64,000 nt of DNA from contig NZ_JACESP010000002.1 of the NCBI RefSeq assembly GCF_013911755.1, positions 1-64,000 of the forward strand. The letters are read 5' to 3'. The notes under the pieces are model-generated. The model made no database searches. It had not been told where the DNA came from and saw only the letters and a program-made list of their open reading frames with translations. Position numbers and translations under genes: made by a program. Shown here one piece after another: positions 15,481 to 35,880 of the stretch; the first letter of the stretch is position 1; every line of letters begins with the position of its first letter. The DNA is from Sphingosinicella sp. (GTDB lineage: Bacteria > Pseudomonadota > Alphaproteobacteria > Sphingomonadales > Sphingomonadaceae).

Positions 15481-16248
15481 CTATTTGGCGAGCCAGTTTG
15501 TAATGGCGTCAAACAGCGCCTGCCGCGCCTCCGGGCGGGTTAGCGTGTGATCAGCGTTTTCGAGCCATAGCGGACGAACATGCGCGCCGAGCGCGGGAAG
15601 CAGCGCCGCGAAAGCCTCTGCGGTTGCGTCGCCGCGGGAGAGCGGGATGAGGACGGGGCCCGGAAACGCATTGATCGCCGCGACGAGGCGCGCGGAGAGG
15701 GCGCTTTCCGCCACAGCACCTTTGCTGAACAGGGTTTTCAGCGCACCCTTTACATCGATCCTGCCGGCGAGGATACGCAGCCAGTTGCGTGGATTGAGAA
15801 GGCGTTTCAGCGTGCGGTCGCGCTGCGCGGCAGCCGGCATTTCGGCGACGTCGCTGTCGAAGCTCCACGGATTGAGCAGAACGAGCCGCTGAATGCCGCT
15901 TGCCGCACCGAACAGAGCGAGCGCCGCCGCGCCGTCGCAAAGCCCGATGCCGACGATGTCCGTGCCGCCTTCATGGCGAAGTGCCGAGGCGGCGGCGGCG
16001 ATGTCGTCCGCGCTGCCGAGAAAGCCTGTGTCCTCGCCCTCGCTGTCTCCGACGCCGCGTCGGTCGAAGCGCAGCGCGGCGATGCCCTGAGCGCCGAGCG
16101 TCTCGGCAAGCGCTGTGAACAGCCGATGCGGCCCGGCCCGGGTCTGCACGCCGCCCGAGACGATGAGCGCGGCGCGTGGCGCTTCGCCGGGGTGCAGCGT
16201 GGCGGCGAGAAGGGTTTCCCCGCAAGGGATGGCGAGCGGGCGGATCAT
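15481..16248 (-). CDS. Exosortase A-associated hydrolase 1 (Cys nucleophile elbow)
   Basis: A 255-residue alpha/beta-fold protein of the family 'hydrolase 1, exosortase A system-associated'. The fold signature is F-D-R-R-G-V-G-D-S-E-G near residue 61. The nucleophile elbow is G-L-C-D-G with Cys104 where most family folds have Ser, and the histidine is in E-N-A-D-H-T near residue 236. A thiol nucleophile would suit an acyl-transfer or thioesterase-like role. The ATG at 16248 overlaps the stop of hydrolase 2 by 4 bases. It is last in the leftward unit ACP - hydrolase 2 - hydrolase 1. I infer that it works on the ACP-bound or ligase-made acyl group rather than on polysaccharide. Activity has not been shown as far as I know. 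Confidence 0.85.
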   Translation of the reverse strand: MIRPLAIPCGETLLAATLHPGEAPRAALIVSGGVQTRAGPHRLFTALAETLGAQGIAALRFDRRGVGDSEGEDTGFLGSADDIAAAASALRHEGGTDIVGIGLCDGAAALALFGAASGIQRLVLLNPWSFDSDVAEMPAAAQRDRTLKRLLNPRNWLRILAGRIDVKGALKTLFSKGAVAESALSARLVAAINAFPGPVLIPLSRGDATAEAFAALLPALGAHVRPLWLENADHTLTRPEARQALFDAITNWLAK

Positions 16249-16922
16249 TGCATCCACGCGGCAATATCTTCGGCGAGCGCGGCGGCGAACGCCGGGGCGG
16301 GGGCGGGTTCGGCCTGCCGCCACACGGGTGGGCCTTCCACTGCGGACACGCGCAGCGGCACGGCAGCTTCCGGGAGCGTCAGGGCGCCGAGGTCAACGGC
16401 AGTTCCGGGCGTGACGTCGTAGCCCGTGAGCGCCACCGTTTCGCCGCGGGCGAAGCGGGCTTCGTAGACCGACGGCGAGACACGCGTCCCATCGCGCTCC
16501 TGATCCGCGATCGCCTGCGCGCGCATCATTTCGCGCAGGAGACTTGCGCCGGAGGAGGCGGGAGAGATGCGGTAAAGGCCTTCACTCCCGGAACCGTCCG
16601 TGAGCAGCGCGCCGCCGCGCACGGCGAGCACGCGAAGCGGGCGCCCCGCCAGCGTTTCGATCAGATGTGCCGTCGCATCCCGCCACGCAGCGACATCAGG
16701 CAAGCCTGAAGCATCCCCGGTACCGGGAAGATCGGCAAGGGCGCTGCCGACACCTTTCGCCGCGAGCGCGCGGCCGAGATCGGCCAGCAGCCGCCGCGCG
16801 CGGTTCATTTCCTCGAACAGCGGCGGCAGGACGAGCACGCACGGACCGGTTTCGGGGCCGCGCAGGATGGTCGGCAGGTCGTATGGCCCGGCGCTGAGCA
16901 GCGTGAACCGGAAGGGCTCCAC
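16245..16922 (-). CDS. Exosortase A-associated hydrolase 2 (no serine nucleophile)
   Basis: A 225-residue protein of the 'hydrolase 2, exosortase A system-associated' family, alpha/beta-like. At the expected nucleophile elbow the sequence is A-V-R-G-G-A-L with no Ser, Cys or Asp, so it is unlikely to be a classical hydrolase and may be a structural partner of hydrolase 1. N-terminal landmarks: L-V-L-P-P-L-F-E-E-M-N-R near residue 30 and L-P-G-T-G-D-A near 64. The start is a GTG at 16922 that directly abuts the ACP stop (TAG|GTG), and its own stop overlaps hydrolase 1, so all three are co-translated. Function unknown. Confidence 0.85.
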   Translation of the reverse strand: MEPFRFTLLSAGPYDLPTILRGPETGPCVLVLPPLFEEMNRARRLLADLGRALAAKGVGSALADLPGTGDASGLPDVAAWRDATAHLIETLAGRPLRVLAVRGGALLTDGSGSEGLYRISPASSGASLLREMMRAQAIADQERDGTRVSPSVYEARFARGETVALTGYDVTPGTAVDLGALTLPEAAVPLRVSAVEGPPVWRQAEPAPAPAFAAALAEDIAAWMQ

Positions 16923-17192
16923 CTAGGCGGCAGCCTTCCGCGCGATGAAGTCGACGAGATTGCCGAAGGTCGCAAACAGGTCCGCATCCACCTCGTCGTC
17001 GTCGATCACGATGCCGAAGCGGTCTTCCATCTCGGTGAGGAGACCCGCGACCGCCATAGAATCGATCTCGGGCAGGGCGCCGAACAGCGGCGAGGCCGCA
17101 TCGAGCCCGGCAGCGGTGCCTTCGGGAACGCCCAGAACCTCGACGAGAATGCGCCGCATCTGATCGGCGCGGGAATCGGTGTCTGCGGTCAT
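16923..17192 (-). CDS. Acyl carrier protein of the exosortase A locus
   Basis: An 89-residue acyl carrier protein with helix pattern and attachment motif E-I-D-S-M, Ser45 being the predicted 4'-phosphopantetheine site. It is acidic after the motif (I-V-I-D-D-D-E-V-D-A-D-L), as usual. ATG 17192 is preferred over GTG 17198 because AGGG sits 5-6 bases ahead of it. It leads the leftward unit with the two hydrolase-fold proteins and is divergent from the GNAT, AMP-ligase and decarboxylase unit. The layout suggests that the AMP-ligase loads a small acid onto this carrier, where partner enzymes modify it. It is distinct from housekeeping AcpP, whose motif is D-S-L. Confidence 0.85.
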   Translation of the reverse strand: MTADTDSRADQMRRILVEVLGVPEGTAAGLDAASPLFGALPEIDSMAVAGLLTEMEDRFGIVIDDDEVDADLFATFGNLVDFIARKAAA

Positions 17193-17298
17193 CTCCACCC
17201 TGTATGCACTGTCGTTGCCGCGGGCGGTATACTGGCGCCGTCTGCAGAGGTAAATGCAGGCGAGACGGCAAGGCGGACAGGGACAGGCAAAGGGGCGG

Positions 17299-17949
17299 AT
17301 GTCGTTTCGTGAAACATGGCGAGCGCTGGGTACGACGACGACGCTGTCCTACGCGATCGGGCGCGTGGCGGCGCGGATTCCGGGGGTTTCCTGGCATCGC
17401 TACCGGCTGATCGCAGTGCCGCTTTCGGGTATGCCGAAAATGCCGCGCGGCCATGTCGTGCGCGAACTTTCAGCCGATGCGCTCAAGACTTTGGTCATCG
17501 ATGCGCCCCTAGATGTGCAGCAGGATCGTTTCGCGCGCGGGCTCATCTGCCTCGGGGCGTTCGACGGCGAGGTGCTGGTCGGGGTCAACTGGCTGGCGCG
17601 GGGTCAATACGACGAAGACGAGGTGAATGTGCGGTTTCTGCTCCCCGATGACGCGGCCTGGGATACGGGGCTCTGGATACGCGAGGACCGGCGGCTCGGC
17701 CGCGCATTCGCGGCGCTGTGGGCGGGGACGGGCGCGTGGCTGGCGGCGCATGGCCTCGCGCGCTCGCTGAGCCGCATTGCCGACTACAACCTCGGCTCGC
17801 TGCGCCCGCATGAGCGCATGGGCGGCAGGACGCTCGGCCGCCTCGCGGCGGCGCGGCTCGGGGCTTGGCAGATCGCGGCGGGCGTGCGGCCCACGATCGT
17901 GCGCGTGGGCGCGGGGACGCCGGCTCTCTGCGATCTGAGGGGCTGCTGA
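17299..17949 (+). CDS. GNAT-type acyltransferase of the exosortase A locus
   Basis: A 216-residue protein with GNAT-like features in its second half: the segment D-R-R-L-G-R-A-F-A-A-L-W-A-G-T at the acyl-CoA-binding helix and the later N-L-G-S-L-R-P-H-E-R-M-G, the usual 'moved up and bumped' C-terminal GNAT motif. The first 60 residues are basic and amphipathic and may contact membrane. ATG 17299 has AAAGGGGCGG just upstream. It is first in the rightward unit, 3 bases before the AMP-ligase gene. I infer transfer of an acyl group, perhaps from the carrier protein next door, to an amine or sugar of the exopolysaccharide. Acceptor and donor are unknown. Confidence 0.65.
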   Translation: MSFRETWRALGTTTTLSYAIGRVAARIPGVSWHRYRLIAVPLSGMPKMPRGHVVRELSADALKTLVIDAPLDVQQDRFARGLICLGAFDGEVLVGVNWLARGQYDEDEVNVRFLLPDDAAWDTGLWIREDRRLGRAFAALWAGTGAWLAAHGLARSLSRIADYNLGSLRPHERMGGRTLGRLAAARLGAWQIAAGVRPTIVRVGAGTPALCDLRGC

Positions 17950-17952
17950 ACC

Positions 17953-19443
17953 ATGCGGGTCGATGCGCTTCATCTTGGCCACGACGGCGCGCGCCCTGCG
18001 CTTGTCGAGGGTGCACACACCACGACCTACGCCGAACTCGAGGCGCTCGTCAGCCGGATGGCGAGCGGGCTTGCCGCAATCGGCGTGCGCCCGGGCGACC
18101 GGGTGGCGGTATGGCTCAGCAAGACCACAGGTAACATCGCCGCGCTGCTCGGCGCGATGCGCGCGGGCGCGATCGCGATTCCGGTCAATCCCGTGCTGAA
18201 GGCGCCGCAGGTCGAACACATCCTTACCGACAGCGGTGCGTCGGCGCTGCTGACCAACAATGCGCGTGCCGAAACACTGCGCAATACGCCGCGCACGTGC
18301 CGCGTGCTACGTGCGGAAAAGGACTGGGGGGCGCTGATGACGGGCGCGCCAGTGACTGTGGATCGCGCGCCGGACGATCTTGCCGCGATTCTCTACACGT
18401 CGGGCAGCACCGGGCGCCCCAAGGGCGTGATGCTCTCGCACGCGAATCTTGCGCTGGGTGCGGAGAGCGTTTCGGAATATCTCGACATCGGGCCGGAGGA
18501 TCGCATCCTGTGCGTGCTGCCTCTCGCGTTCGACTACGGCCTCAACCAGGTGCTGACAGCGCTGAGGCAGGGCGGGGCGGCTATCCTGCTCGACTATCTG
18601 CTCCCCCGCGATGTCGTGAAGGCGGTCGTCCGCCACAAGGCGACGGGCCTTGCAGGTGTGCCGCCGCTGTGGATGCAGCTTGCCGAAGTGGACTGGCCCG
18701 CCGAGGCGCGCGGTCTGCGCTACATCACCAATTCCGGCGGGCGGATGCCTGCGGCCCTCACCAAACGGCTGCGCGAGTTGCTGCCGAACACGAAAATATA
18801 CCTGATGTACGGCCTCACCGAGGCGTTCCGCTCGACGTACCTCGATCCGGCGCTCGTCGACACGCGCCCGGATTCGATCGGGCGGGCGATCCCGCGCGCG
18901 GAGCTTCACGTCCTGCGCGCCGATGGCACGCCTGCGATGGCCGGCGAGCCGGGCGAGCTTGTCCATGCCGGGCCCCTCGTCGCGAAGGGCTACTGGAACG
19001 ATCCCGAGCGGACCGCGGTGCGCTTTCGTCCAGCGCCCGCGTTTTTCGCGCATTCGGGTATGGCCGTGTGGTCGGGTGACACGGTGATGCGAGACGACGA
19101 AGGCCTGCTCTATTTCGTCGGCCGCGACGACGAGATGATGAAGATTTCGGGCAACCGCGTGAGCCCCACCGAGGTTGAGGAGGCGATCTTTGCGACCGGT
19201 GCGGTGAGCGCGGTCGCGGTGTTCGGCGTGGCGGACGATCGGCTCGGGCAGGCGATCGTGGCCGTCGGTGTGCGGGCCGCCGGGCTCGGCGAGATGGAAG
19301 CGGAGGCGCTTGCGCGGCGGGAGCTTGCGGGGCTAGTGCCTGCCTACATGGTGCCGCGCCACTTCATCTGGGAGACCGAGCTGCCGCGCAATCCGAACGG
19401 CAAGATCGACCGTGCCGTGCTGCGCGCAAGGCACGTCCAGTGA
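17953..19443 (+). CDS. AMP-forming acyl-CoA ligase, exosortase A-associated
   Basis: A 496-residue adenylate-forming enzyme (ANL superfamily). Core motifs are present: L-Y-T-S-G-S-T-G-R-P-K-G-V (P-loop, about residues 147-159), Y-L-M-Y-G-L-T-E, the hinge region V-G-R-D-D-E-M-M-K-I-S-G-N-R-V, and the catalytic C-terminal Lys in N-P-N-G-K-I-D-R. It should activate a carboxylic acid with ATP and load it on CoA or on the phosphopantetheine arm of the ACP at 16923. Proteins of this named family occur in type-1 exosortase loci beside a PLP decarboxylase, as here. Its stop overlaps the decarboxylase start by 4 bases (GTGA). The acid activated is not known. Confidence 0.9.
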   Translation: MRVDALHLGHDGARPALVEGAHTTTYAELEALVSRMASGLAAIGVRPGDRVAVWLSKTTGNIAALLGAMRAGAIAIPVNPVLKAPQVEHILTDSGASALLTNNARAETLRNTPRTCRVLRAEKDWGALMTGAPVTVDRAPDDLAAILYTSGSTGRPKGVMLSHANLALGAESVSEYLDIGPEDRILCVLPLAFDYGLNQVLTALRQGGAAILLDYLLPRDVVKAVVRHKATGLAGVPPLWMQLAEVDWPAEARGLRYITNSGGRMPAALTKRLRELLPNTKIYLMYGLTEAFRSTYLDPALVDTRPDSIGRAIPRAELHVLRADGTPAMAGEPGELVHAGPLVAKGYWNDPERTAVRFRPAPAFFAHSGMAVWSGDTVMRDDEGLLYFVGRDDEMMKISGNRVSPTEVEEAIFATGAVSAVAVFGVADDRLGQAIVAVGVRAAGLGEMEAEALARRELAGLVPAYMVPRHFIWETELPRNPNGKIDRAVLRARHVQ

Positions 19444-20669
19444 GCCGCGATCACCGGATCCACCCGCTGTTCCGCGAGAAGGACGGCGAACTCGCGATCG
19501 CAGGCCGGACAGTGAGCGAGTGGGTTTCGGCCGCGGGCGGGCGCACGCCGCTGTTCGTTTACGACCGTGCGGTGATCGCCGCGAAAATCGCGGACCTGCG
19601 CGCCGCGCTGCCCGCAGAGGTTGGCATTCACTACGCGATGAAGGCGAATCCGATGCCCGCGCTCGTCGCGTGGATGGCGGGGCAGGTGGACGGGCTCGAT
19701 GTCGCCTCGGCGGGCGAGCTGCGCGTCGCGCTCGCGGCAGGCGGCGAACCGGTGCACATCAGCTTCGCGGGACCGGGCAAGCGCGACTTCGAGCTTGAGC
19801 TGGCGGTCGGTGCGGGGGTGACGCTCAACATCGAATCCGCGCGGGAGTTCGCGCGCGCTGCTGCGATCGGTCAGCGGCTCGGAAAACAGGTGCGCGCCGC
19901 CGTGCGCGTCAATCCGCCGTTCGACCTCAAGGCCTCCGGGATGCGTATGGGCGGCGGGGCGAAGCCGTTTGGCGTCGATGCTGACAAGGTGCCGGCGCTG
20001 CTCGCCGAAATCGCGGCGGAAGGTGCGGATTTTTGTGGGTTTCACGTATTCGCCGGGTCGCAGAACCTCTCTGCGGAGGCGATCATCGACGCGCAGGGGA
20101 AGACGCTCGATCTGGTGGCCGACCTTGCGGAGCACGCGGCCGTGCCGCCGCCGCTCGTCAATCTCGGCGGCGGCTTCGGCCTGCCGTATTTTCCGGGCGA
20201 TCAGCCGCTCGATCTCGCCGCCGTGGGGCGCGCGCTCGGCAATACGCTTGCGGCGCGCGATCCCATCCTGACGGAAACACGGTTCGTCGTGGAACTCGGG
20301 CGTTATCTGGTCGGCGAAAGTGGCGTCTATCTGACACGCGCCATCGACCGGAAGATGAGCCAGGACGAGGTCTTCATCATTACCGACGGCGGCCTGCACC
20401 ATCAGCTGGCGGCCAGCGGCAACTTCGGAACGGTCATCCGGCGCAACTATCCCCTTGCAAACGCAAGCCGTTTCGGTGCGCCGGACGCCGAAAGCCTCAA
20501 CGTTGTCGGGTGCCTCTGCACGCCGCTCGACAGACTCGGCGACAAGGTCATGCTTCCTGCCACCGAGGTTGGTGACGTCATTGCGGTTTTCATGGCAGGC
20601 GCCTATGGCCTTACCGCTAGCCCGACAGCCTTCCTGAGCCACGACCCTCCCGCCGAAATGCTTGCATAA
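19440..20669 (+). CDS. PLP-dependent decarboxylase, exosortase A-associated
   Basis: A 409-residue fold-type III (alanine racemase/DAP decarboxylase-like) enzyme. Lys68 in H-Y-A-M-K-A-N-P forms the PLP imine. G-G-G-F-G-L-P-Y holds the cofactor phosphate, E-L-G-R-Y-L matches the substrate-side motif, and the partner-subunit cysteine motif appears as G-C-L-C-T-P-L-D. It belongs to the exosortase A-associated branch, not to lysine biosynthesis. The nearest biochemical analogy I know is BtrK, which decarboxylates glutamyl-ACP in butirosin synthesis. With an AMP-ligase coupled in front and an ACP nearby, decarboxylation of a carrier-bound amino acid is a reasonable inference. The start is a GTG at 19440 overlapping the ligase stop. 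Confidence 0.9.
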   Translation: MSRDHRIHPLFREKDGELAIAGRTVSEWVSAAGGRTPLFVYDRAVIAAKIADLRAALPAEVGIHYAMKANPMPALVAWMAGQVDGLDVASAGELRVALAAGGEPVHISFAGPGKRDFELELAVGAGVTLNIESAREFARAAAIGQRLGKQVRAAVRVNPPFDLKASGMRMGGGAKPFGVDADKVPALLAEIAAEGADFCGFHVFAGSQNLSAEAIIDAQGKTLDLVADLAEHAAVPPPLVNLGGGFGLPYFPGDQPLDLAAVGRALGNTLAARDPILTETRFVVELGRYLVGESGVYLTRAIDRKMSQDEVFIITDGGLHHQLAASGNFGTVIRRNYPLANASRFGAPDAESLNVVGCLCTPLDRLGDKVMLPATEVGDVIAVFMAGAYGLTASPTAFLSHDPPAEMLA

Positions 20670-20834: not shown

Positions 20835-21473
20835 ATGGCGAAATCTTTTAATGTGGTCGTTCCGGCCCTGGCGGTAGCCCTTGCGCTGTCCGCCTGCGCT
20901 TCGAACAGCGGGCTGCCGACCTTGCCGCCCGCGCAATTCCAGGCCTCCGAGGATGGCCCTGGCGCCGAGTACGTCGTCGGCCCGCTCGATTCCCTCAGCA
21001 TCTTCGTGTGGCGTAACCCGGAGCTGTCGACATCGGTGACGGTGCGTCCTGACGGCCGCTTCACGACGCCGCTGATCGAGGACATGGTGGCGACGGGCAA
21101 GACGCCCTCGGCGCTCGCCCGCGAAGTCGAGCAGAAGCTCGCGACCTACATTCAGGAACCGATCGTTTCGGTGATCGTGAACAACTTCAACGGACCGCTT
21201 TCGCAGCAGGTCCGCGTCGTTGGCGAAGCGGCGCGCCCGCAGGCGATTCCGTTCCGTTCGAACATGACGCTGCTCGACGTGATGATCGCAGTCGGTGGTC
21301 TGACCGAATATGCCGCCGGCGACAGCGCACGCCTGATCCGCTACGACAAGGCGAGCAACACGCAGAAGGAATATGCGGTCAAGATCGAAAGCCTGCTGAA
21401 AGGCGGCAAGACGAACGCGAACATCGCCGTGCAGCCCGGTGACGTCATCATCATCCCGGAAAGCTTTTTCTAA
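20835..21473 (+). CDS. XrtA-system polysaccharide export lipoprotein (Wza-like)
   Basis: A 212-residue outer-membrane lipoprotein of the polysaccharide biosynthesis/export family. The signal ends in lipobox L-S-A-C (Cys21). The poly_export domain starts at Y-V-V-G-P-L-D-S-L-S-I-F-V-W, followed by V-R-P-D-G-R-F-T-T-P-L and an SLBB-like repeat (V-R-V-V-G-E-A-A-R-P-Q-A-I-P) ending V-Q-P-G-D-V-I-I-I-P. It would form the export channel for the polymer. At 212 residues it is the short type usual in PEP-CTERM loci and lacks the C-terminal outer-membrane helix of full-length Wza. It opens the operon that runs to 33571. Confidence 0.93.
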   Translation: MAKSFNVVVPALAVALALSACASNSGLPTLPPAQFQASEDGPGAEYVVGPLDSLSIFVWRNPELSTSVTVRPDGRFTTPLIEDMVATGKTPSALAREVEQKLATYIQEPIVSVIVNNFNGPLSQQVRVVGEAARPQAIPFRSNMTLLDVMIAVGGLTEYAAGDSARLIRYDKASNTQKEYAVKIESLLKGGKTNANIAVQPGDVIIIPESFF

Positions 21474-21544
21474 GCTTTCCGGAATAGGTACGGAGATCGG
21501 CCCCAGGCCATTCATCCTTGTCAGGCAGGCGGTCCGCGAAAGCC

Positions 21545-23089
21545 ATGAATTCGATCCAGGAAGAAGTGATGACGACCCTTTACGGGGTCTGGCGCAAACG
21601 CTGGTACGGGCTTGCGCTGATGTGGGCCGTTTGCCTCATCGGCTGGGTGTTCGTGGCGACGATTCCCAACACCTATGAATCGCAAGCGCGCGTTTATGTC
21701 GACTGGGCATCGCTGATCCCCGAAAAACTGGGCTATCAGGGGACCAACCTGCTTCGGCAAGTGGACGTGGTTCGGCGCACGCTGACGTCGCGCGTGAACA
21801 TGGAGAAGGTCGTTCGCCGCACCGAACTCGATGTCGGTCTCGACAGCGATCAGGAGCTGGACGAGCTCATCACGCGGATGACGAACAACATCTCCGTGCA
21901 GAGCCAGCAGGCTGACCTGTTCACCATTGTCTACAAGTCGGATGACCCCTCGCGCAGCAACGCCCAGAACGCCAATCTCGCGCGGCGCGTCGTCGACAAT
22001 CTCATCCAGATCTTCATGGAAGAGAATGTCGCGTCAGACCGTGACGACATCAACGAGGCGATCCGCTTCTTCGAGGATCAGCTCGCCGAGCGTGAGCGTC
22101 AGCTCGAGGAGGCGGAGCGTCGCAAGGCGGAGTTCGAGGAGAAATACCTCGGAATGCTCCCGGGCGAGGGGAACATCTCGACGCGCCTGGCGCAGTCGCG
22201 CAACAATCTGGACAATGTCGAGATCGAGCTTGCCCAGGCGCGGAACTCGCTTCAGGCCTTGCAGCGCCAGATCGGAGGCACGCCTTCAACGATCAATGCG
22301 CCGTCGTTCGTGATCGAAGGGGCCTCGATGGGCTCCAGCCCGACGCAGCAGCAGATCGCGGCGCTGGGTCGCAGCCTCAGCGACATGTATGCGCGCGGCT
22401 GGACCGATCAGCACCCTGACGTGATCGCCACGAAGGCGCAGGTCCGCCGTCTCGAACAGCAGGCTGCGCGCGAGGCGAAAGACCCTGCGCTCCGCCAGCA
22501 GGCGGCGCAGGCGAATCCGGTCTACGTCAACCTCAGAAGCATGGTTTTCGAACGCCAGTCCGCCGTTGCAGCGCTGGAAGCGCGGCGTGCGCAGCTGCAG
22601 AACGCGATCTCCCAGATGTCGTCACGGCAGGTCCAGCAGCCCGGCATCGTTGCCGAGCAGGCCAAGCTGAACCGTGATTACGAGGTGCTGCAATCGCAGT
22701 ACAATCAGCTGCTCAAATCGCGCGAGGAAATCCGCCTTCGCAGCGACGTCGAGACCAAGACGCAGCAGGTGAAGTTCCGCGTCGTCGATCCGCCCTCGCA
22801 GCCGCGTGAGCCGATCGCGCCGAACCGTCCGCTCTACCTCAGCCTGGTGCTGCTGGTCGGTCTCGGTGCGGGCGCTGCGCTCTCGTTCCTGCTGAGCCAG
22901 CTGCACACGACCTACATCACGGCGGCACAGCTCGAAAAGCGCTTCGACTATCCGGTGCTGGGTTCGGTCACGGAGATCGTTTCGGACAACCAGCGCGCCC
23001 AGAACAGGGTGTGGCTGTGGGGGTTCGGCGTGCTCAGCCTTGGGCTCATCGTGATCTATCTTGCACTGCTGCTGTATGAACTCGTTTAA
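21545..23089 (+). CDS. XrtA-system polysaccharide chain-length determinant
   Basis: A 514-residue inner-membrane protein of the Wzz/chain-length family in its PEP-CTERM form. Membrane helix 1 lies at about 20-42 (Y-G-L-A-L-M-W-A-V-C-L-I-G-W). The extracytoplasmic part has a long coiled coil (about 165-290, rich in E-R-Q-L-E-E-A-E-R-R-K) and another stretch before the proline-rich membrane-proximal motif P-P-S-Q-P-R-E-P-I-A-P-N-R-P. Two further hydrophobic segments follow. It sets polymer length and partners the autokinase encoded next. ATG 21545 is chosen because M-N-S-I-Q-E-E-V matches the usual N-terminus; ATG 21569 has the better ribosome site. There is no kinase domain, so the system is split. 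Confidence 0.92.
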   Translation: MNSIQEEVMTTLYGVWRKRWYGLALMWAVCLIGWVFVATIPNTYESQARVYVDWASLIPEKLGYQGTNLLRQVDVVRRTLTSRVNMEKVVRRTELDVGLDSDQELDELITRMTNNISVQSQQADLFTIVYKSDDPSRSNAQNANLARRVVDNLIQIFMEENVASDRDDINEAIRFFEDQLAERERQLEEAERRKAEFEEKYLGMLPGEGNISTRLAQSRNNLDNVEIELAQARNSLQALQRQIGGTPSTINAPSFVIEGASMGSSPTQQQIAALGRSLSDMYARGWTDQHPDVIATKAQVRRLEQQAAREAKDPALRQQAAQANPVYVNLRSMVFERQSAVAALEARRAQLQNAISQMSSRQVQQPGIVAEQAKLNRDYEVLQSQYNQLLKSREEIRLRSDVETKTQQVKFRVVDPPSQPREPIAPNRPLYLSLVLLVGLGAGAALSFLLSQLHTTYITAAQLEKRFDYPVLGSVTEIVSDNQRAQNRVWLWGFGVLSLGLIVIYLALLLYELV

Positions 23090-23121
23090 CGCCCTGGCCC
23101 TGGCTGTGTGCGCGGAAGGTA

Positions 23122-24111
23122 ATGACGATGAGTGAAGAGAAACCGTCCGGAACGCCGCGCGCCTCGCTGCTTGAGCGGGCCGCCGGACGGCTTGATCAGG
23201 GTGTGGCTGCGAAGCCCGCGACGCCGCGTTCCACAGTAACGCCGGCTGCGGCAGCGGCTCCTGCGCCGCGCGCGCCTGCACCGGCAGCGCCTGCGGCGGC
23301 GGCGATTGCCCCGCAGCCGCAATTCGCCACGCCGGAAACACCAGTGGTGCACCTGCCGGCGGACGACGGCAATCGCACCAGCCGCCGCGGCGTTATCGAT
23401 CTCGCTGAACTCCGCGATCTTGGCTACGTGGTGCCTGACGCGCCCGCAACGGCCACCGCCGAAGAGTTCCGCATCGTGAAGCGGCAACTCCTCATCAACG
23501 CCATGGCACGCGGCGAGAACGCAATCCGCAACGGCAATCTCATCCTCGTGTGCTCGGCTCAGCCGAATGAAGGCAAGACGTTCTGCGCGACCAATCTTGC
23601 ACTTTCGATCGCTTCGGAGCGGGATCTCACCGTTCTGCTCGTCGATGCCGACTTCGCAAAGCCCGAGATTCTCTCGACGCTCGGCCTTGAAGGCGGCAAA
23701 GGGCTCGTCGATGTGATCGCCGATCCGTCACTCGACCTCTCGGACTGCCTGATCCGCACCAACATCGAAAATCTCTCGGTACTGCCGGCCGGACGCCAGC
23801 ATAACCTGACGACCGAGCTGCTCGCGTCTGAACGCATGGGCGACATGGTCGAGGAAATCGCCAAGCGCTACAGCGACCGCATCGTGATCTTCGATTCCCC
23901 GCCGGCGCTCGCGTCTTCCGCGGCTTCGGTGCTTGCCATGCACGTGGGTCAGGTGATGTTCGTGGTCGAAGCCGAAAACACGCGCGAGACCGAGCTTCGC
24001 GACGGTCTTTCGATGATGAATGGCTGTGAGCACGTTCAGATGCTTCTCAACAAGGTGCGCTATGCCGGTGTCGGCAGGCGCTTTGGCACCTATTACGGCT
24101 ATGGAAGCTGA
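23122..24111 (+). CDS. XrtA-associated tyrosine autokinase (CpsD/Wzc-type)
   Basis: A 329-residue cytoplasmic BY-kinase. The first 105 residues are Ala/Pro-rich and low complexity. The kinase domain then shows Walker A in A-Q-P-N-E-G-K-T-F, Walker A' in L-L-V-D-A-D-F-A-K-P and Walker B in I-V-I-F-D-S-P-P-A. The tail ends in a short tyrosine cluster, Y-Y-G-Y-G-S, for autophosphorylation. It would control chain length and export together with the protein encoded just before it. GGAAGGT precedes ATG 23122. The gap to the previous gene is 32 bases, and the next gene starts 2 bases after its stop. Confidence 0.92.
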   Translation: MTMSEEKPSGTPRASLLERAAGRLDQGVAAKPATPRSTVTPAAAAAPAPRAPAPAAPAAAAIAPQPQFATPETPVVHLPADDGNRTSRRGVIDLAELRDLGYVVPDAPATATAEEFRIVKRQLLINAMARGENAIRNGNLILVCSAQPNEGKTFCATNLALSIASERDLTVLLVDADFAKPEILSTLGLEGGKGLVDVIADPSLDLSDCLIRTNIENLSVLPAGRQHNLTTELLASERMGDMVEEIAKRYSDRIVIFDSPPALASSAASVLAMHVGQVMFVVEAENTRETELRDGLSMMNGCEHVQMLLNKVRYAGVGRRFGTYYGYGS

Positions 24112-25875: not shown

Positions 25876-26955
25876 ATGTACACCGAGTTCTATAATCTGA
25901 ACGGACGCCCGTTCCAGTTGACGCCTGATCCGCGCTTCTACGTCGATACGCAGACGCACCGAAAGGCGATGGCCTACCTCACCTATGGCCTTGGCCAGGG
26001 CGAGGGCTTCATCATCATCACCGGCGATGTCGGCGCGGGCAAGACGACGCTTGTCGGCCGTCTGCTGCAGACCATCGACCGCTCGAAGCTGGTCGTCGCC
26101 AACATCGTCACTTCGCTCGTCGATGCCGACAACCTTTTGAAGATGATCGCGACGGGCCTTGGTATCAACGCCGAGAACCTTGATGTCGCAACGCTGCTCA
26201 CGCGCATCGAGAATTTCCTGCGCGTGCAGCACCAGCAGGGCCGCCGCGTGCTGCTGATCGTCGACGAGGCGCAGAACCTGCCGATCGGCTCGCTCGAACA
26301 GTTGCGAATGCTCTCCAACTTCAGCGCGGGCGCGCAGCCGCTCAGCCAGACGATCCTGCTCGGGCAGCCGGAATTCCGCGAAAAACTCGCCAGTTCCTCC
26401 GAGCTTGAACAGCTTCGCCAACGTGTGATCGCCTCGCACCATCTGGAGCCGATGCGCCGCGACGAAATTCCGGCCTATGTCGAGAACCGGCTGGCGCTGT
26501 GCGGCTGGGCCGGGGATCCGGCCTTCACCGAGGATGCTTATGACGCGCTTTTCGACTATTCGGGCGGCGTCCCGCGCAAGCTGAACAATCTGTGCGCGCG
26601 CGTTCTGCTGTTCGGTGCGCTTGAAGAAAAGCACGAGATCGACGAATCGATCGTGCGCGAAGTGACCGACGACCTGCAGCGCGACAATGCACCCCGAGAC
26701 CGCGAAAAGATCATCCAGCCGAACAGCGGTTCGCTCGCCGCCGTGCCTCCGGCGCAGCAAATGCAGCCCGTGGTCGCGATGGGTGGCGGCGCTGCCGGAG
26801 CGCTCGACGATCGTTTGCTCGCGCGTATTGATCGCCTTGAACATTATGCTTCAGAAAACGACCGTAATCTTCGGCAAGTGCTTCGGATTCTTTCCGATCT
26901 CGTCGAACAGAACGAGGTCGAGCGCGGCCCGTACGGCGTCAGCCGAAGCGCATGA
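25876..26955 (+). CDS. XrtA-associated ATPase (ExeA-like AAA)
   Basis: A 359-residue AAA ATPase related to ExeA/GspA. It starts M-Y-T-E-F-Y-N-L, as usual for the family. Walker A is G-D-V-G-A-G-K-T-T-L (about residues 50-59), Walker B is V-L-L-I-V-D-E-A-Q, and a sensor region and C-terminal winged part follow (G-G-V-P-R-K-L-N-N-L-C). Unlike ExeA it has no evident membrane helix or peptidoglycan-binding domain. The last 80 residues are variable and end in a predicted helix. It is standard in exosortase A loci and presumably powers assembly of the envelope complex. GAGGAA precedes the ATG; the stop overlaps the next start by 4 bases. Confidence 0.92.
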   Translation: MYTEFYNLNGRPFQLTPDPRFYVDTQTHRKAMAYLTYGLGQGEGFIIITGDVGAGKTTLVGRLLQTIDRSKLVVANIVTSLVDADNLLKMIATGLGINAENLDVATLLTRIENFLRVQHQQGRRVLLIVDEAQNLPIGSLEQLRMLSNFSAGAQPLSQTILLGQPEFREKLASSSELEQLRQRVIASHHLEPMRRDEIPAYVENRLALCGWAGDPAFTEDAYDALFDYSGGVPRKLNNLCARVLLFGALEEKHEIDESIVREVTDDLQRDNAPRDREKIIQPNSGSLAAVPPAQQMQPVVAMGGGAAGALDDRLLARIDRLEHYASENDRNLRQVLRILSDLVEQNEVERGPYGVSRSA

Positions 26956-27830
26956 GCTGCGCGGTGGCGAACCGCGGCGTCTGCAATGCGATGTCGGTCG
27001 ACGTGGAAGAGCACTTTCAGGTCGGCGCGTTTGAAACGACCATCCGCCGCGAGGATTGGCCGCACTGGGATAGCCGCGTGGTCCGCAATACCGAACGCGC
27101 GCTCCAGCTCTTCGCCGACAAGGGTGTCTCGGCGACGTTCTTCACGCTCGGCTGGGTCGCGGAGCGTGAGCCGGCGCTGATGCGCCGTATCGTCGAGAAC
27201 GGTCACGAGATCGCCAACCACGGCTACGCACACGACCGGGTGCACACATTCACGCCGGAGAGCTTCCGCGCCGACATCCGCAAGGCGCGCGCGCTGATCG
27301 AAGATGCCGCAGGTGCCGAGGTGAAGGGCTACCGCGCGCCGAGTTTCTCGATCGGCAGCGGCAACCGCTGGGCGCTCGAGGTGCTCGCCGAAGAGGGGTA
27401 CGCGTACAGTTCTTCGGTCGCGCCGATCCGTCACGATCATTACGGCTGGCCGGAAGCGCCGCGCTTCCCGCACCGGCCGGTTGCGGGGTCCGACATGATC
27501 GAGGTGCCGGTGACGACGGTGGAATATGCTGGTCGCCGCATGGCGTGCGGAGGCGGCGGCTTTTTCCGTCTGCTGCCTTACGGTCTTTCCGAATGGGCGA
27601 TCGACCGTGTGAACCGCGTCGAGGGCGAAGCCACGGTGTTCTACTTCCACCCGTGGGAGATCGACCCTGAGCAGCCCGTGGTGCCGGGCGCGCCGCTCAA
27701 ATCGCGTATCCGCCATTATACCAACCTTGACGTGATGGAGGCCAAGCTCGCGCGCCTGCTGGACCGGTTCCGCTGGGACCGCATGGACCGCGTATTCCTC
27801 GGCCGCGAGACGCTGAAGGCGGCGGCATGA
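26952..27830 (+). CDS. XrtA-system polysaccharide deacetylase (NodB fold, DUF3473)
   Basis: A 292-residue carbohydrate esterase 4-type enzyme. S-V-D-V-E-E-H-F supplies the catalytic and metal-binding Asp region. The metal-binding histidines sit in N-H-G-Y-A-H (HxxxH), and Y-R-A-P-S-F-S-I lies in motif 3. The C-terminal segment beginning F-Y-F-H-P-W-E-I-D-P is the DUF3473 extension of the PEP-CTERM type. It should remove N- or O-acetyl groups from the exopolysaccharide or its precursors. There is no signal peptide, which implies cytosolic action on lipid-linked intermediates unless exported another way. It overlaps the ATPase gene before it and the FemAB-like gene after it, each by 4 bases. 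Confidence 0.92.
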   Translation: MSCAVANRGVCNAMSVDVEEHFQVGAFETTIRREDWPHWDSRVVRNTERALQLFADKGVSATFFTLGWVAEREPALMRRIVENGHEIANHGYAHDRVHTFTPESFRADIRKARALIEDAAGAEVKGYRAPSFSIGSGNRWALEVLAEEGYAYSSSVAPIRHDHYGWPEAPRFPHRPVAGSDMIEVPVTTVEYAGRRMACGGGGFFRLLPYGLSEWAIDRVNRVEGEATVFYFHPWEIDPEQPVVPGAPLKSRIRHYTNLDVMEAKLARLLDRFRWDRMDRVFLGRETLKAAA

Positions 27831-28879
27831 ACGCGGAAAGCCCGATCGCGCCGACCGTGACGGAAATCGACCTCGACGATGCCGGGGCGGCCGAGGCGTT
27901 CGACGCCGCTGCTCTTAAGCATCCGGGCGCGACGCCGTTTCACCGCGCGGCATGGGGCAGGGCGATCCGCGACGCGCTTGGGCACACGCCGCACTACCTG
28001 ATGGCCGGGGATGCGGTGCTGCCGCTGATCGCGCTCAAATCCGGTCTGTTCGGCTCCGCGCTGATCTCGAATGCCTTTGCCGTGCGGGGCGGGCCACTCG
28101 CGGGCGATCCGCGCGCGCTTGCGGCGCTCGACAAGGCGGCGTGGGCGATCGCCGAGGCTGCAGGCATCGGCGTGCTCGAATATCGCGGCACCGAGGCGCT
28201 GCATCCGGACTGGGCGGTGAAGACGGAGACCTACGCGAACTTCGCGCGTCCGCTCGAGGCCGACAGCGAGGCGAACCTGAAAGCGATCCCGAGGAAGCAG
28301 CGCGCCGAAGTGCGCCGCTCGCTGACGATGGACCTTAGTGTGCGCGTGGCGTCTGACGCCAAGGCGCTTAAGGACCATTTCGCCGTCTATTCGGAAAGCG
28401 TCCGCAACCTCGGCACGCCGGTGTTTCCGGCGCGGCTGTTTGCCGAGATTATCCGTCATTTCGGTGCGGATGCGGACATTCTTACCGTCTACCATCAGGA
28501 TGAGCCTGTCGCTTCCGTGCTGTCGCTCTACGACGCGGAGACGGTCTATCCCTATTACGGCGGCGGGACGGCGGCGGCGCGAGCGCTGCGTGCCAACGAT
28601 CACATGTACTGGATGCTGATGGAGCACGCCGTGGCGCGCGGACGGCGGGCATTCGATTTCGGGCGTTCGAAGTACGATACCGGTGCGTTCGCCTTCAAGA
28701 AGAACTGGGGCTTCGAGCCGCAACCGCTCGTCTACGAATACCGGCTGGCAGAAGGGCGCACGATGCCTGACGTCAATCCGAACAACCCCAAATACAAGCT
28801 GATGACCGAGGTGTGGAGCCGCCTGCCGCTGTGGCTTGCGAACCGGATGGGGCCGCTCGTCTCGCGGTCGCTGGGCTAG
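27827..28879 (+). CDS. FemAB-like protein, XrtA/PEP-CTERM system-associated
   Basis: A 350-residue protein of the FemAB-related family found in exosortase A loci, built of GNAT-like folds. FemAB relatives transfer aminoacyl groups from tRNA in peptidoglycan cross-bridge synthesis; the substrate of this branch is not known. Visible segments: F-H-R-A-A-W-G-R near residue 40, I-P-R-K-Q-R-A-E-V-R-R near 150 (basic, suits a tRNA or phosphate contact), Y-P-Y-Y-G-G-G near 240, and F-D-F-G-R-S-K near 278. In context it may add an amino-acid-like group to the polymer or a lipid carrier. It could use the product of the ligase/decarboxylase unit, which is speculation. Translationally coupled to the deacetylase gene. 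Confidence 0.88.
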   Translation: MNAESPIAPTVTEIDLDDAGAAEAFDAAALKHPGATPFHRAAWGRAIRDALGHTPHYLMAGDAVLPLIALKSGLFGSALISNAFAVRGGPLAGDPRALAALDKAAWAIAEAAGIGVLEYRGTEALHPDWAVKTETYANFARPLEADSEANLKAIPRKQRAEVRRSLTMDLSVRVASDAKALKDHFAVYSESVRNLGTPVFPARLFAEIIRHFGADADILTVYHQDEPVASVLSLYDAETVYPYYGGGTAAARALRANDHMYWMLMEHAVARGRRAFDFGRSKYDTGAFAFKKNWGFEPQPLVYEYRLAEGRTMPDVNPNNPKYKLMTEVWSRLPLWLANRMGPLVSRSLG

Positions 28880-28883: not shown

Positions 28884-30116
28884 ATGGGCGACCTTCTGTT
28901 CCTTGCACACCGCATTCCCTATCCGCCCGACAAGGGCGACAAGATCCGGTCGTGGAATATCCTGAAATACATCGCTGAGCGCGCGCCCGTGCATCTCGGG
29001 GCGTTCGTCGACGATCCCGAGGACATGAAGCACGCCGATTTCCTGGCGAGCGTCTGCAAGTCCGTGAAGCTGATCCCGCTGGACCCCAAGGACAGGCTGA
29101 AGCGCGCATGGGCGGGCTGGCGCAAGGGCGAGGCGCTCAGCATCGCGCTGTTCGACGACCGTGCCATGAAGCGCTGGGTGTGGGACCGCGTAAAGCAACA
29201 CAACATCGACCGCATGTTCGTGTTTTCGAGCCAGATGGCCCCCTATGCGCTCGGGCATACGTCGCAGGGCCGCCGCACGGTGATGGACTTTGTCGATATC
29301 GATTCAGACAAGTTCGCGCAGTACGCGAAGGAGAGCCGTTGGCCGAAATCCTGGCTCTATGCGCGTGAGGCGAAGCTGCTGCAGGCATTCGAGAAGCAGG
29401 TGGCACGTCATGTCGACGTCAGCCTGTTCGTTTCGGAGGCTGAAACCGCGATGTTCAAGCGCATCGCCGGTTCCTACGCGCACACGGTCGACACGCTGCA
29501 CAACGGCGTCGACCTTGCCTATTTCTCGCCCAATGCGGATTTCGCGCCGCTCGGCGAAGAGGCCGGGCCGAAACTCGTGTTCACGGGCGCGATGGATTAC
29601 CGGCCTAATGTCGATGCCGTCTACTGGTTCGCCGACGTCATCCTGCCGCTTGTCCGCAAGCGTTATCCGCAAGCGCGGTTCTTCATCGTGGGCGGCAAGC
29701 CGATGTCTGAGGTGCAGGCGCTCGCCGGCCGCGAAGGCATTGTCGTGACCGGCCGCGTGCCCGATGTCCGGCCCTATGTCGCGGCCGCCGACGTGACGGT
29801 GGCGCCTGTCCGCATCGCGCGCGGCGTGCAAAACAAGGTGCTGGAAGCGATGGCGATGGCGCGGCCCGTGGTGGCCACCGAGGCGGCTTGGTCCGGCATC
29901 GATGCCGAGCCGGAACGCGATCTCCTCGTGCGCGACAACGCGGCAGCCTTCGCTGCTGGTGTTTGCGCCGTGCTGGACGACCCGGCGCTCGGCGCGCGCC
30001 TTGCCGAAAACGGACGGCGGCAAGTCGAAAGCCGCTACGCCTGGCCGGCGCAGCTCGGGAAGCTCGACGCGTGGCTCGGGCTCGGCGCGGCAGACTCGAA
30101 AGTGGAAGCGGCATGA
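28884..30116 (+). CDS. XrtA-system glycosyltransferase (GT4 type)
   Basis: A 410-residue GT-B fold glycosyltransferase of the family seen in PEP-CTERM/XrtA loci. N-terminal Y-P-P-D-K-G-D-K-I-R is the family signature near residue 12. F-T-G-A-M-D-Y-R-P-N starts the C-terminal donor domain. The nucleotide-sugar motif is V-Q-N-K-V-L-E-A-M-A-M-A-R-P-V-V-A, with the retaining GT4 Glu in place. It would add one sugar of the repeat unit on the cytoplasmic face; the sugar cannot be read from sequence. ATG 28884 is chosen, 4 bases after the previous stop; upstream frame lies inside the FemAB gene. No strong Shine-Dalgarno site, so coupling is likely. Its stop overlaps the exosortase start. Confidence 0.9.
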   Translation: MGDLLFLAHRIPYPPDKGDKIRSWNILKYIAERAPVHLGAFVDDPEDMKHADFLASVCKSVKLIPLDPKDRLKRAWAGWRKGEALSIALFDDRAMKRWVWDRVKQHNIDRMFVFSSQMAPYALGHTSQGRRTVMDFVDIDSDKFAQYAKESRWPKSWLYAREAKLLQAFEKQVARHVDVSLFVSEAETAMFKRIAGSYAHTVDTLHNGVDLAYFSPNADFAPLGEEAGPKLVFTGAMDYRPNVDAVYWFADVILPLVRKRYPQARFFIVGGKPMSEVQALAGREGIVVTGRVPDVRPYVAAADVTVAPVRIARGVQNKVLEAMAMARPVVATEAAWSGIDAEPERDLLVRDNAAAFAAGVCAVLDDPALGARLAENGRRQVESRYAWPAQLGKLDAWLGLGAADSKVEAA

Positions 30117-31648
30117 ACGATATGAGCGAGTTCGAAGCCCGGACGGGTGCGACCGGGAAGGGCTGGCGCCCGGCGATCATCGCGTGGGTGGCGGTAGCGG
30201 CGGCGATCCTGCTGCTGCTTCGCAACGATGTCGCGCACATCTTCGACCTCTGGTGGAACACCGATACGTTCGGGCACTGCCTGCTGATCCCGCCGATCCT
30301 TGGCTACCTGGTTTGGCAGCGTCGCTGCGAACTTTCCGCACTGACGCCGAAGCCCTGGTATCCGGCGGCGATCCTGATGGTGATCGGCGGCGCGGGCTGG
30401 CTGGTGGGCGAGGCGTCAGGCGTCGCTTTGCTGCGCCATATGGCGGTCGTCGGGCTGCTCATCGTCAGCGTTCCGCTCGTATTCGGGCTCACAGTGTCGC
30501 GCGGCCTTGCGTTCGTGCTGTTCTTCGCGTTGTTCATGATCCCGGCCGGCGAGCAGCTCGTGCCGATCCTGCAGACGGTCACGGCGGCGATCTGCATCAA
30601 GCTGCTCGAATGGTCGGGCATTCCCGCCTTCATCGACGGCGTGTTCATCGCCATCCCCAACGGCAATTTCGAGGTCGCTGAGGCATGCTCTGGCGTGCGC
30701 TTCCTGATCGCGATGATCGCATTCAGCGTGCTTGTCGCGAACCTCTGCTTCAAGAGCTGGACGCGGCGCATCCTGTTCGTTCTCTCGGCAATCGCGCTGT
30801 CGATCCTTGCGAACGGCATCCGCGCCTTCGGCACGATCTACATCTCGCACCTGACGACGCCGGGCTTCGCGGCGGGCGTCGATCATATCATCTACGGCTG
30901 GATATTTTTCGCGATCGTGATGTTCCTGCTGGTCGCTATCGGCTGGCGCTTCTTCGACCGCCCAGTTGACGATCCGGCGTTCGATCCGGCGCGGCTGCAG
31001 CCTGCGCCACCGGCACCGTCCGCGCCACGCGCGGCCGTTGTTGCGGCGGCGCTTGGCATTGCCGCGATGGCGGCGGGCCCCGTCTACGGCCTCGTCGTCG
31101 CGAACCGTGCACCTGATACCCAGACTGCCGCGGTCGTGCTTCCCGACGTGCCGGGCTGGCAGCGCATCGAAGGGCAGCCGGATTGGCAGCCGCATTACAA
31201 AGGCATTTCCGCCGAAGCCATCGCGCGCTACGTCGATGGGGAGGGCCAGCCGATCGACCTCTACATCGGCGTGTTCGACCGGCAGACCGAGGACGGCGAG
31301 CTCATCGGCTACAAGCAGGGCCTGCTTCCGCCCGAGACCGAATGGTCGTGGGCGCGCAATGAAAAGGGGCCGGCGAACGGCCGCGCGCAGCAGATCAAGA
31401 ACGGCAGCACGGTGCGCGACAACTGGCAGTTCTTCCTTGTGAACGGCAAACTGACCGGAAGCGACTACGTGGCCAAGATCGAGGGGCTGAAGTCGCGGCT
31501 GCTCGGCGGTGAGACGATGGCGGGCACGCTCGTCATATCCGCCGATCGGCGTGACGAACTGGTGAGCGCCATGCCGGCGATCGAACGCTTTGCGGCGGCG
31601 CTCGGACCGGTCGATACCGCGATCGAGACCGCCACGGTGGAGCGCTAG
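30113..31648 (+). CDS. xrtA: Exosortase A with fused C-terminal EpsI domain
   Basis: A 511-residue fusion. Residues about 18-282 are exosortase A: several membrane helices and the catalytic trio Cys192 (A-C-S-G-V-R-F), Arg237 (N-G-I-R-A-F) and His258 (V-D-H-I-I-Y). It is the membrane transpeptidase expected to cleave PEP-CTERM signals. Residues about 300-500 are an EpsI (DUF3485) domain: L-P-D-V-P-G-W-Q-R-I, Y-I-G-V-F-D-R-Q and G-Y-K-Q-G-L, lying outside the cytoplasm after another helix. EpsI is a separate gene in some species and fused in others; its task is unknown. ATG 30113 overlaps the GT stop by 4 bases. A much longer upstream open frame runs through the GT gene and is not real. Confidence 0.93.
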   Translation: MNDMSEFEARTGATGKGWRPAIIAWVAVAAAILLLLRNDVAHIFDLWWNTDTFGHCLLIPPILGYLVWQRRCELSALTPKPWYPAAILMVIGGAGWLVGEASGVALLRHMAVVGLLIVSVPLVFGLTVSRGLAFVLFFALFMIPAGEQLVPILQTVTAAICIKLLEWSGIPAFIDGVFIAIPNGNFEVAEACSGVRFLIAMIAFSVLVANLCFKSWTRRILFVLSAIALSILANGIRAFGTIYISHLTTPGFAAGVDHIIYGWIFFAIVMFLLVAIGWRFFDRPVDDPAFDPARLQPAPPAPSAPRAAVVAAALGIAAMAAGPVYGLVVANRAPDTQTAAVVLPDVPGWQRIEGQPDWQPHYKGISAEAIARYVDGEGQPIDLYIGVFDRQTEDGELIGYKQGLLPPETEWSWARNEKGPANGRAQQIKNGSTVRDNWQFFLVNGKLTGSDYVAKIEGLKSRLLGGETMAGTLVISADRRDELVSAMPAIERFAAALGPVDTAIETATVER

Positions 31649-35812: not shown

Positions 35813-35880
35813 CCCCGATCCGCTAGCCGCCGCGCGGGGCACTTGCAAGACGCCCGCGCACGCCGATAGATGGGCACCGT

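What the first reader, a model, noticed from the sequence alone, without database searches (positions are those of the whole stretch)
15481..20669. ACP + AMP-ligase + PLP decarboxylase beside exosortase A: a carrier-bound decarboxylation pathway for modifying the exopolysaccharide?
Two divergent, tightly coupled units encode an acyl carrier protein, an ATP-dependent ligase, a DAP-decarboxylase-like enzyme, a GNAT protein and two alpha/beta-fold proteins. The same three central activities make gamma-aminobutyryl-ACP from glutamate in butirosin synthesis (BtrJ, BtrI, BtrK). By analogy this locus would load an amino acid onto the ACP, decarboxylate it there, and hand an aminoacyl group to the polymer or to the exosortase product through the GNAT or FemAB-like protein. 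If right, the nucleophile or decoration used in exosortase A systems would be an amine made in this locus, an undescribed chemistry.
Basis: partly seen in the sequence, partly recalled or inferred. Interest (0 to 1): 0.8.

Follow-up and report, generated by a model that had tools for sequence, protein, structure and literature searches.

The report
Carrier-bound amino-acid decarboxylation trio by exosortase A
Three genes beside a bacterial slime-and-protein-sorting locus appear to load an aspartate-like amino acid onto a carrier protein and clip off its CO2, giving a small amine-bearing building block whose final use is still unknown.

Summary
The genes are there as described. Ligase, decarboxylase and hydrolase 1 pass the cut-offs of NCBIfam families TIGR03098, TIGR03099 and TIGR03100, named "exosortase A system-associated"; the set is catalogued, its reaction is not. 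The ligase pocket matches VinN best; its D, S/T and R recognition residues occur in 71 of 71 family rows and 0 of 22 other ligases of this genome. The decarboxylase is BtrK-like: LysA's Arg is Ala/Ser in 72 of 72 rows and CE[ST] is CTP, as in BtrK. Expected product: an omega-aminoacyl-ACP, most likely beta-alanyl. BtrJ is not the ligase's kin; VinN, BolO and AfcQ systems work alike. The exosortase link is not supported as written: of 147 genomes of the order, 25 of 99 with XrtA lack the decarboxylase and 11 of 89 with it show no XrtA. In several the ACP-ligase-decarboxylase trio alone survives between trxB and truA, under purifying selection. Hydrolase 1 (invariant Cys) is in 72 of 74 genomes with both. 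A role in EPS decoration is inferred; beta-alanine supply is a live rival.

The parts
15481..16248 (-). hydrolase 1 (TIGR03100), alpha/beta-hydrolase fold with Cys104 at the nucleophile elbow (codon 15937-15939), Asp207 and His234
   Evidence: 173.7 bits, cut-off 168.45; C, D, H in 34 of 34 rows
16245..16922 (-). hydrolase-2-like protein (TIGR03101, below cut-off); Arg102 at the nucleophile position (codon 16617-16619): probably not a hydrolase
   Evidence: 67.4 of 202.75 bits; Arg in 35 of 35 rows, one of them a second copy of the window's gene
16923..17192 (-). acyl carrier protein; phosphopantetheine Ser in EIDSM (codon 17058-17060)
   Evidence: PF00550; Ser in 52 of 52 rows, one a second copy of the window's gene
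17254..17949 (+). 231-aa protein, possibly GNAT-like; in 10 other loci a PF13480-type GNAT/FemAB gene is clustered with these genes, in 8 of them between ACP and ligase
   Evidence: sub-threshold; 4 of the 10 scanned, all 4 over cut-off
17953..19443 (+). ANL (AMP-forming) ligase, TIGR03098, VinN-type pocket Asp194, Tyr195, Ser261, Phe292, Arg293
19440..20669 (+). PLP decarboxylase TIGR03099, BtrK-like; PLP Lys68 (codon 19641-19643), CTPxD motif
20835..24111 (+). export protein, chain-length determinant, tyrosine autokinase of the XrtA/EPS locus (context)
25876..28879 (+). XrtA-associated ATPase, polysaccharide deacetylase, FemAB-family protein TIGR03019 (context)
29888..31648 (+). exosortase A with EpsI C-terminal domain (ORF as listed; real start probably downstream, XrtA domain 30182-30958) (context)
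31652..33571 (+). XrtA-associated amidotransferase TIGR03108 (context)
34170..35848 (-). truA and fmt, the right-hand flank that also borders the trio directly in nine loci without XrtA or with weak exosortase matches only

Best explanation
The ligase (17953-19443) adenylates the side-chain carboxyl of an amino-dicarboxylic acid, most likely L-aspartate (3-methylaspartate or glutamate not excluded), and loads it on the holo-ACP. The PLP decarboxylase (19440-20669) then removes the alpha-carboxyl on the carrier, giving an omega-aminoacyl-ACP (beta-alanyl-ACP if Asp). This trio is a self-standing module. In genomes that also carry the XrtA/EPS locus, hydrolase 1 (Cys-His-Asp acyl-transfer type), its pseudo-hydrolase partner and sometimes a GNAT/FemAB-type protein join it and probably pass the group to the exopolysaccharide or its precursor. 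Shown by sequence: families, pocket and active-site residues, gene order, co-occurrence. Inferred: substrate identity, the reactions themselves, and everything after the ACP.
For: Pocket segment best PDB match VinN, E 5e-22. D/[ST]/R triple 71 of 71 family rows against 0 of 22 other ligases of the genome; roles of these residues from PMC7756342, PMC11253843 and PMC12186527 passages. Decarboxylase: BtrK E 5e-74, best DAP decarboxylase 9e-36; LysA Arg and CE[ST] (25 of 25; 10 of the 25 scanned, all 10 over the lysA cut-off) replaced by Ala/Ser and CTP in 72 of 72, Ala and CTP in BtrK; BtrK falls on the family's side of a 100/100 split from 26 LysA. ACP Ser 52 of 52. Trio kept without XrtA under purifying selection (dN/dS 0.09-0.13 for the decarboxylase in the three closest XrtA-less pairs). 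Hydrolase 1 in 72 of 74 genomes with both decarboxylase and XrtA, 2 of 11 with decarboxylase only, 1 of 25 with XrtA only.
Against: No activity was tested. Asp against Glu is not resolved; 10 of 71 ligases have Ala where VinN has Phe231 and Thr where it has Ser299, so the family may hold two specificities. No transferase or acceptor is identified; hydrolase 1 also occurs in a Burkholderia EPS cluster in whose paper the word exosortase does not occur (Bcam1334, PMC3584217). Hydrolase 1 following XrtA rests on about 5 independent pairs (sign test p 0.06-0.25). The trio's presence without EPS genes shows that this EPS cannot be its only use.
Confidence: 0.68

Rival explanations
1. The trio is an alternative beta-alanine supply (Asp to beta-alanyl-ACP to beta-alanine) for pantothenate and CoA in bacteria without PanD; the EPS link is a later or second use.
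For: All 64 same-family genomes of the sample have panC, none has panD or panP; 60 have the decarboxylase. In 147 genomes decarboxylase and panD coincide once, in a 76%-complete assembly (88 decarboxylase only, 19 panD only). 105 of 130 panC genomes have one or the other against 3 of 17 without panC. The trio outlives XrtA and EPS.
Against: 12 of 45 trio-bearing genomes reached through one search have panD. 4 same-family genomes and 25 of 147 in all have panC but neither source. panD is confined to one family of the sample, so the pattern may be common descent only. No hydrolase 1 remains in most genomes where the trio stands alone.
Confidence: 0.2
2. The amine is the nucleophile or attachment group used by exosortase A for PEP-CTERM proteins.
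For: Adjacency to the XrtA locus in the window and many relatives; NCBIfam names.
Against: 25 of 99 XrtA genomes of the order lack the decarboxylase; in the nine XrtA loci fetched from genomes without it (eight of the 25, one with XrtA below cut-off) the EPS genes that fall inside the stretch are there. 11 of 89 decarboxylase genomes have no XrtA match; at least 5 changes of state are forced by starred branches.
Confidence: 0.05
3. The trio loads glutamate and makes gamma-aminobutyryl-ACP, as in butirosin.
For: The decarboxylase is nearest to BtrK among solved structures.
Against: The ligase pocket is VinN-like with an aromatic at the Phe231 position in 61 of 71, where known substrates are 3-MeAsp and Asp.
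Confidence: 0.15
4. Ordinary acyl-CoA ligase and free amino-acid decarboxylase that happen to be neighbours.
For: Family names say acyl-CoA ligase and pyridoxal-dependent decarboxylase, with lysA the next best family.
Against: Pocket and active-site residues; ligase and decarboxylase side by side in 41 of 46 loci, an ACP in the stretch in 29 of 46.
Confidence: 0.05

Closest known systems
AfcQ/AfcK/AfcP of AFC-BC11 biosynthesis (PMC12186527, passages seen)
   Same: VinN-type A enzyme, single carrier protein, PLP decarboxylase; L-Asp loaded through its side chain, decarboxylated on the carrier to beta-Ala, in vitro
   Different: Lipopeptide cluster with fatty acyl-AMP ligase and KAS III; here EPS/XrtA neighbours and an alpha/beta-hydrolase pair; sequences not compared here
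VinN/VinL/VinO of vicenistatin (PMC11284099, passages seen)
   Same: ANL ligase + free-standing ACP + PLP decarboxylase; ligase pocket residues shared
   Different: Feeds a polyketide synthase through VinM and VinK; VinO sequence not compared here
BolO/BolC/BolN of bolagladin (PMC7756342, passage seen)
   Same: Same three parts; BolN reported as BtrK-like, BolO with the VinN residues
   Different: Lipodepsipeptide context; sequences not compared here
BtrJ/BtrI/BtrK of butirosin
   Same: Decarboxylase is the nearest solved relative and shares CTPxD
   Different: BtrJ is placed among ATP-grasp enzymes, the ligase here is ANL
NCBIfam TIGR03098, TIGR03099, TIGR03100, TIGR03101
   Same: Three of four curated cut-offs passed by the window's proteins
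   Different: hydr2 is below its cut-off; the family names give no specific substrate or product

Membership tests
VinN-type side-chain-carboxyl-activating A enzymes | Asp230 (amino group), Ser299 and Arg331 (alpha-carboxylate) | tested here: met
   Asp194, Ser261, Arg293 in the window; triple 71 of 71 rows (2 of them second copies of the window's gene), Thr for Ser in 12; 0 of 22 controls, one of them gapped at two of the columns
VinN-type side-chain-carboxyl-activating A enzymes | bulky Phe231 opposite a shortened loop | tested here: met
   Tyr195 in the window (61 of 71; Ala in 10); the segment aligns to VinN without a gap at this loop
VinN-type side-chain-carboxyl-activating A enzymes | activates Asp or 3-MeAsp at the side-chain carboxyl | not testable with these tools
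   needs enzyme assay
BtrK-type ACP-linked decarboxylases | PLP Lys, CTPxD in place of CE[ST]xD, loss of the LysA Arg | tested here: met
   (72 rows; PLP Lys 71, one row gapped)
BtrJ/BtrI/BtrK system | ATP-grasp ligase | tested here: not met
   ligase is PF00501/TIGR03098; BtrJ as ATP-grasp from a passage of PMC4431377
exosortase A-dependent component | present only with XrtA, and XrtA only with it | tested here: not met
   74 of 89 decarboxylase genomes have XrtA over cut-off, 4 a weaker match, 11 none; 25 of 99 XrtA genomes lack the decarboxylase
PanD substitute | replaces panD in all genomes that make pantothenate | tested here: inconclusive
   near mutual exclusion in the order, 12 of 45 counter-examples elsewhere, 25 panC genomes with neither
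GNAT (231-aa protein) | Pfam GNAT model over gathering score | tested here: inconclusive
TIGR03101 hydrolase 2 | curated cut-off; a catalytic nucleophile if it is a hydrolase | tested here: not met
   67.4 of 202.75 bits; Arg at the nucleophile position in 35 of 35 rows

The most novel reading that the evidence does not exclude
A widespread, non-antibiotic module that makes beta-alanyl- (or oligo-beta-alanyl-) ACP from aspartate: a carrier-bound beta-alanine route that serves CoA supply or envelope chemistry on its own, and that, where the Cys hydrolase and its Arg-for-Ser pseudo-hydrolase partner are present, puts beta-alanyl groups on the exopolysaccharide of XrtA bacteria.
Probability: 0.25. 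Interest if true: 0.8.

Novelty: new variant of a known kind. Interest (0 to 1): 0.62.

Why it matters
Families named only 'exosortase A system-associated' get a testable reaction: aspartate-type amino acid to omega-aminoacyl-ACP. It would bring chemistry known from antibiotic clusters into a common environmental gene set, give the EPS of XrtA bacteria a predicted amine decoration that mass spectrometry can look for, and separate this module from the protein-sorting step. It also points at an open question: how panD-less sphingomonads obtain beta-alanine.

Tried and rejected
Trio as obligate XrtA partner: rejected on two-way dissociation. Trio as strict PanD substitute: not upheld as a rule but kept as a rival. 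PanP as the missing beta-alanine source: 0 of 147. A conserved transferase next to the trio in genomes without EPS: of the neighbours looked at, those that recur are housekeeping genes or shared by close relatives only; not every neighbour was scanned. The Haft 2006 paper: six terms (decarboxylase, ligase, hydrolase and others) have 0 occurrences. Literature: searches (4 papers, all listed; 39 papers, 20 listed; 42, 25 listed; 1 paper, TIGR03100 only; 4, all listed; 462, 15 listed) showed no listing that assigns a function to this ligase/decarboxylase pair. The library holds open-licence PMC papers only; I judged from titles and abstract starts except for the papers whose passages are cited, and none was read whole.

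Rows dropped or wrong: the first decarboxylase tree read 7 sequences on the wrong strand; redone with HMM-chosen frames. One search uses 81 of the 89 decarboxylase genomes (G163, G176, G180, G215, G218, G228, G238, G247 left out); G146, whose XrtA match is sub-cut-off but lies about 11 kb from its decarboxylase, was counted as having XrtA; G170 and G245, with weak exosortase matches only, as lacking it. One search uses 30 of the 72 decarboxylase rows, chosen by me for spread. L001 and L056 are second copies of the window's own gene in the 71 ligase rows. Searches took 45 of the 46 loci (L011 left out). In the first control alignment (7 rows) one control had Arg at the Arg331 column; in the fuller one (22 rows) none had. 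At least one locus seems to lie in the same genome as a G handle (equal coordinates).
Full report
The observation. The window lies in a Sphingosinicella-like genome (the four nearest loci are 90-93% identical over the decarboxylase). Two divergent units are present. On the minus strand: hydrolase 1 (15481-16248), hydrolase-2-like (16245-16922) and an ACP (16923-17192). On the plus strand: a 231-aa gene (17254-17949), an AMP-forming ligase (17953-19443) and a PLP decarboxylase (19440-20669). Neighbours overlap by 4 bases, abut or lie 3 bases apart. The EPS/XrtA locus follows from 20835 to 33571. Ligase, decarboxylase and hydrolase 1 pass the cut-offs of TIGR03098, TIGR03099 and TIGR03100; the second hydrolase reaches 67 of 203 bits for TIGR03101. 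So the gene set was already catalogued, without a specific reaction.

The ligase. Searched whole, it matches NRPS adenylation domains and CoA ligases alike. Searched with its pocket segment alone, the best solved structures are those of VinN, E 5e-22, ahead of gramicidin synthase at 5e-17. VinN's Asp230 binds the amino group, and Ser299 and Arg331 are proposed to hold the alpha-carboxylate, so that the side-chain carboxyl is activated (passages of PMC7756342, PMC11253843, PMC12186527). The window has Asp194, Ser261, Arg293 and the aromatic Tyr195 at the Phe231 position. Across 71 rows (two are copies of the window's own gene): Asp 71, Ser 59 or Thr 12, Arg 71. Among 22 other ANL enzymes of the same genome none has the triple. 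Two pocket types exist: DYSFR 59 (plus DYTFR 2) and DATFR 10, so two substrates are possible. The Lys of the C-terminal NGK motif is kept in 69 of 71.

The decarboxylase. By sequence its best solved relatives are the two BtrK entries (5e-74 and 6e-74); the best DAP decarboxylase is at 9e-36. In 25 alpha-proteobacterial LysA (10 of them scanned, all over the lysA cut-off) the 2p3e Arg311 position is Arg 25 of 25 and the motif is CE[ST]; in 72 family rows it is Ala or Ser and CTP, and BtrK has Ala and CTP. That this Arg and the Glu/Ser of the motif bind the far end of DAP is recalled knowledge, not a tool result. Their loss fits a substrate whose far end is a thioester. In a 58-row tree BtrK lies with the family across a 100/100 split from 26 LysA; BtrK has a long branch, and no third group was used as outgroup. 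The ACP keeps its Ser in 52 of 52 rows.

Precedents. AfcQ/AfcK/AfcP load L-Asp on a carrier and decarboxylate it there to beta-Ala, even iteratively (PMC12186527 passages); VinN/VinL/VinO is described likewise and BolO/BolC/BolN is proposed to follow the same logic. The inferred product is an omega-aminoacyl-ACP, most likely beta-alanyl.

Link to exosortase A. In 147 genomes of the order: decarboxylase 89 (E up to 1e-80; 85 over the cut-off), XrtA over cut-off 99, both 74. Decarboxylase with no XrtA match at E 1e-30: 11 (one, G163, is an 81%-complete assembly with the gene on a 3.4-kb contig); with sub-cut-off exosortase matches only: 4. XrtA over cut-off without decarboxylase: 25. Nine XrtA loci of genomes without decarboxylase were fetched (L105-L113: eight of those 25, and G174 with XrtA below cut-off). 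They carry the EPS run but no ACP, ligase, decarboxylase or hydrolases of these families; the two shorter stretches (L112, L113) hold only part of the run. Twelve loci of decarboxylase genomes lacking XrtA, or with only weak exosortase matches, were fetched (L085-L096; a thirteenth, L097, is too short to tell). All twelve keep ACP, ligase and decarboxylase. Nine show nothing else of the cluster beyond weak or paralogous hits; L091 keeps an ATPase, L094 ATPase and deacetylase, and L089 keeps both hydrolases and an export gene. In seven of these loci, and in L030 and L033, the decarboxylase is followed directly by truA and fmt, the genes that follow the amidotransferase in the window; trxB lies on the other side in all nine, within about 2.4 kb of the ACP in eight and 4.7 kb away in L090. 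The missing genes lie on both sides of the trio, so one deletion cannot explain its survival. On a tree of 81 decarboxylases XrtA presence changes at least 8 times, 5 forced by starred branches. In the three closest XrtA-less pairs dN/dS is 0.09-0.13 for the decarboxylase and 0.10-0.14 for the ligase, with dS 0.9-1.4, so values are rough; over all pairs of the three genes not saturated it stays under 0.47. Among the 45 trio genomes reached through, 32 have XrtA over cut-off, 7 only weaker matches and 6 none.

The hydrolases. Hydrolase 1 is found in 72 of 74 genomes with decarboxylase and XrtA, 2 of 4 with weak XrtA, 2 of 11 with decarboxylase only, 1 of 25 with XrtA only, 3 of 22 with neither, 0 of 11 with weak XrtA and no decarboxylase. 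On the tree it follows XrtA in 3-5 of 5 independent pairs and never goes the other way; p 0.06-0.25, so suggestive only. Its nucleophile elbow has Cys in 34 of 34 rows with invariant Asp207 and His234; the second protein has Arg at that place in 35 of 35. I infer that hydrolase 1, perhaps with the second as partner, couples the trio's product to EPS. In ten loci a PF13480-type GNAT/FemAB gene is clustered with these genes, in eight of them between ACP and ligase; four of the ten were scanned and all four pass Pfam's cut-off. The window has the 231-aa gene in that place, whose GNAT assignment is sub-threshold.

Beta-alanine rival. All 64 same-family genomes have panC, none panD or panP, 60 the decarboxylase. 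In the order the decarboxylase and panD coincide in 1 of 147 genomes (G247, 76% complete); 105 of 130 panC genomes have one of the two, 3 of 17 panC-less ones. Against it, 12 of 45 trio genomes reached through one search have panD, and 25 panC genomes have neither. It stays open.

Verdict. The carrier-bound decarboxylation is well supported by residues and precedent, the exosortase nucleophile idea is not, and delivery to the polysaccharide is plausible but unproven.

Noticed in passing
16001-20000: G+C is 0.69-0.70 over the trio block against 0.60-0.64 in the neighbouring 2-kb bins, the highest stretch of the window; origin not examined.
   Followed up: no
same-family genomes (order sample): 64 of 64 have panC and none has panD or panP, so their beta-alanine source is unknown.
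   Followed up: partly
16245-16922 and TIGR03101 relatives: 'Hydrolase 2' has Arg at the nucleophile position in 35 of 35 rows: the family name is probably misleading.
   Followed up: partly
ligase family, residues 195 and 261 (window numbering): Two pocket types, Tyr with Ser (59) and Ala with Thr (10), 2 mixed, of 71 rows: possibly two substrates.
   Followed up: partly
L043:11591-12406: Nitrosomonas locus has the PEP-CTERM-associated acyltransferase TIGR03694 (N-acyl amino acid synthase type, recalled) next after the decarboxylase.
   Followed up: no
L022:2243-3037: Chromatium okenii has an M48/LoiP-like protease gene between ligase and decarboxylase.
   Followed up: no
genus code g181 of the order sample: 12 of 13 genomes lack panC (the 13th has a partial match), and none has panD or the decarboxylase.
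   Followed up: no
L059:1336-2730: A decarboxylase intermediate between the family and LysA (312 bits by my model, CTT motif, very long branch) in a genome whose XrtA match is cut by a contig end.
   Followed up: no
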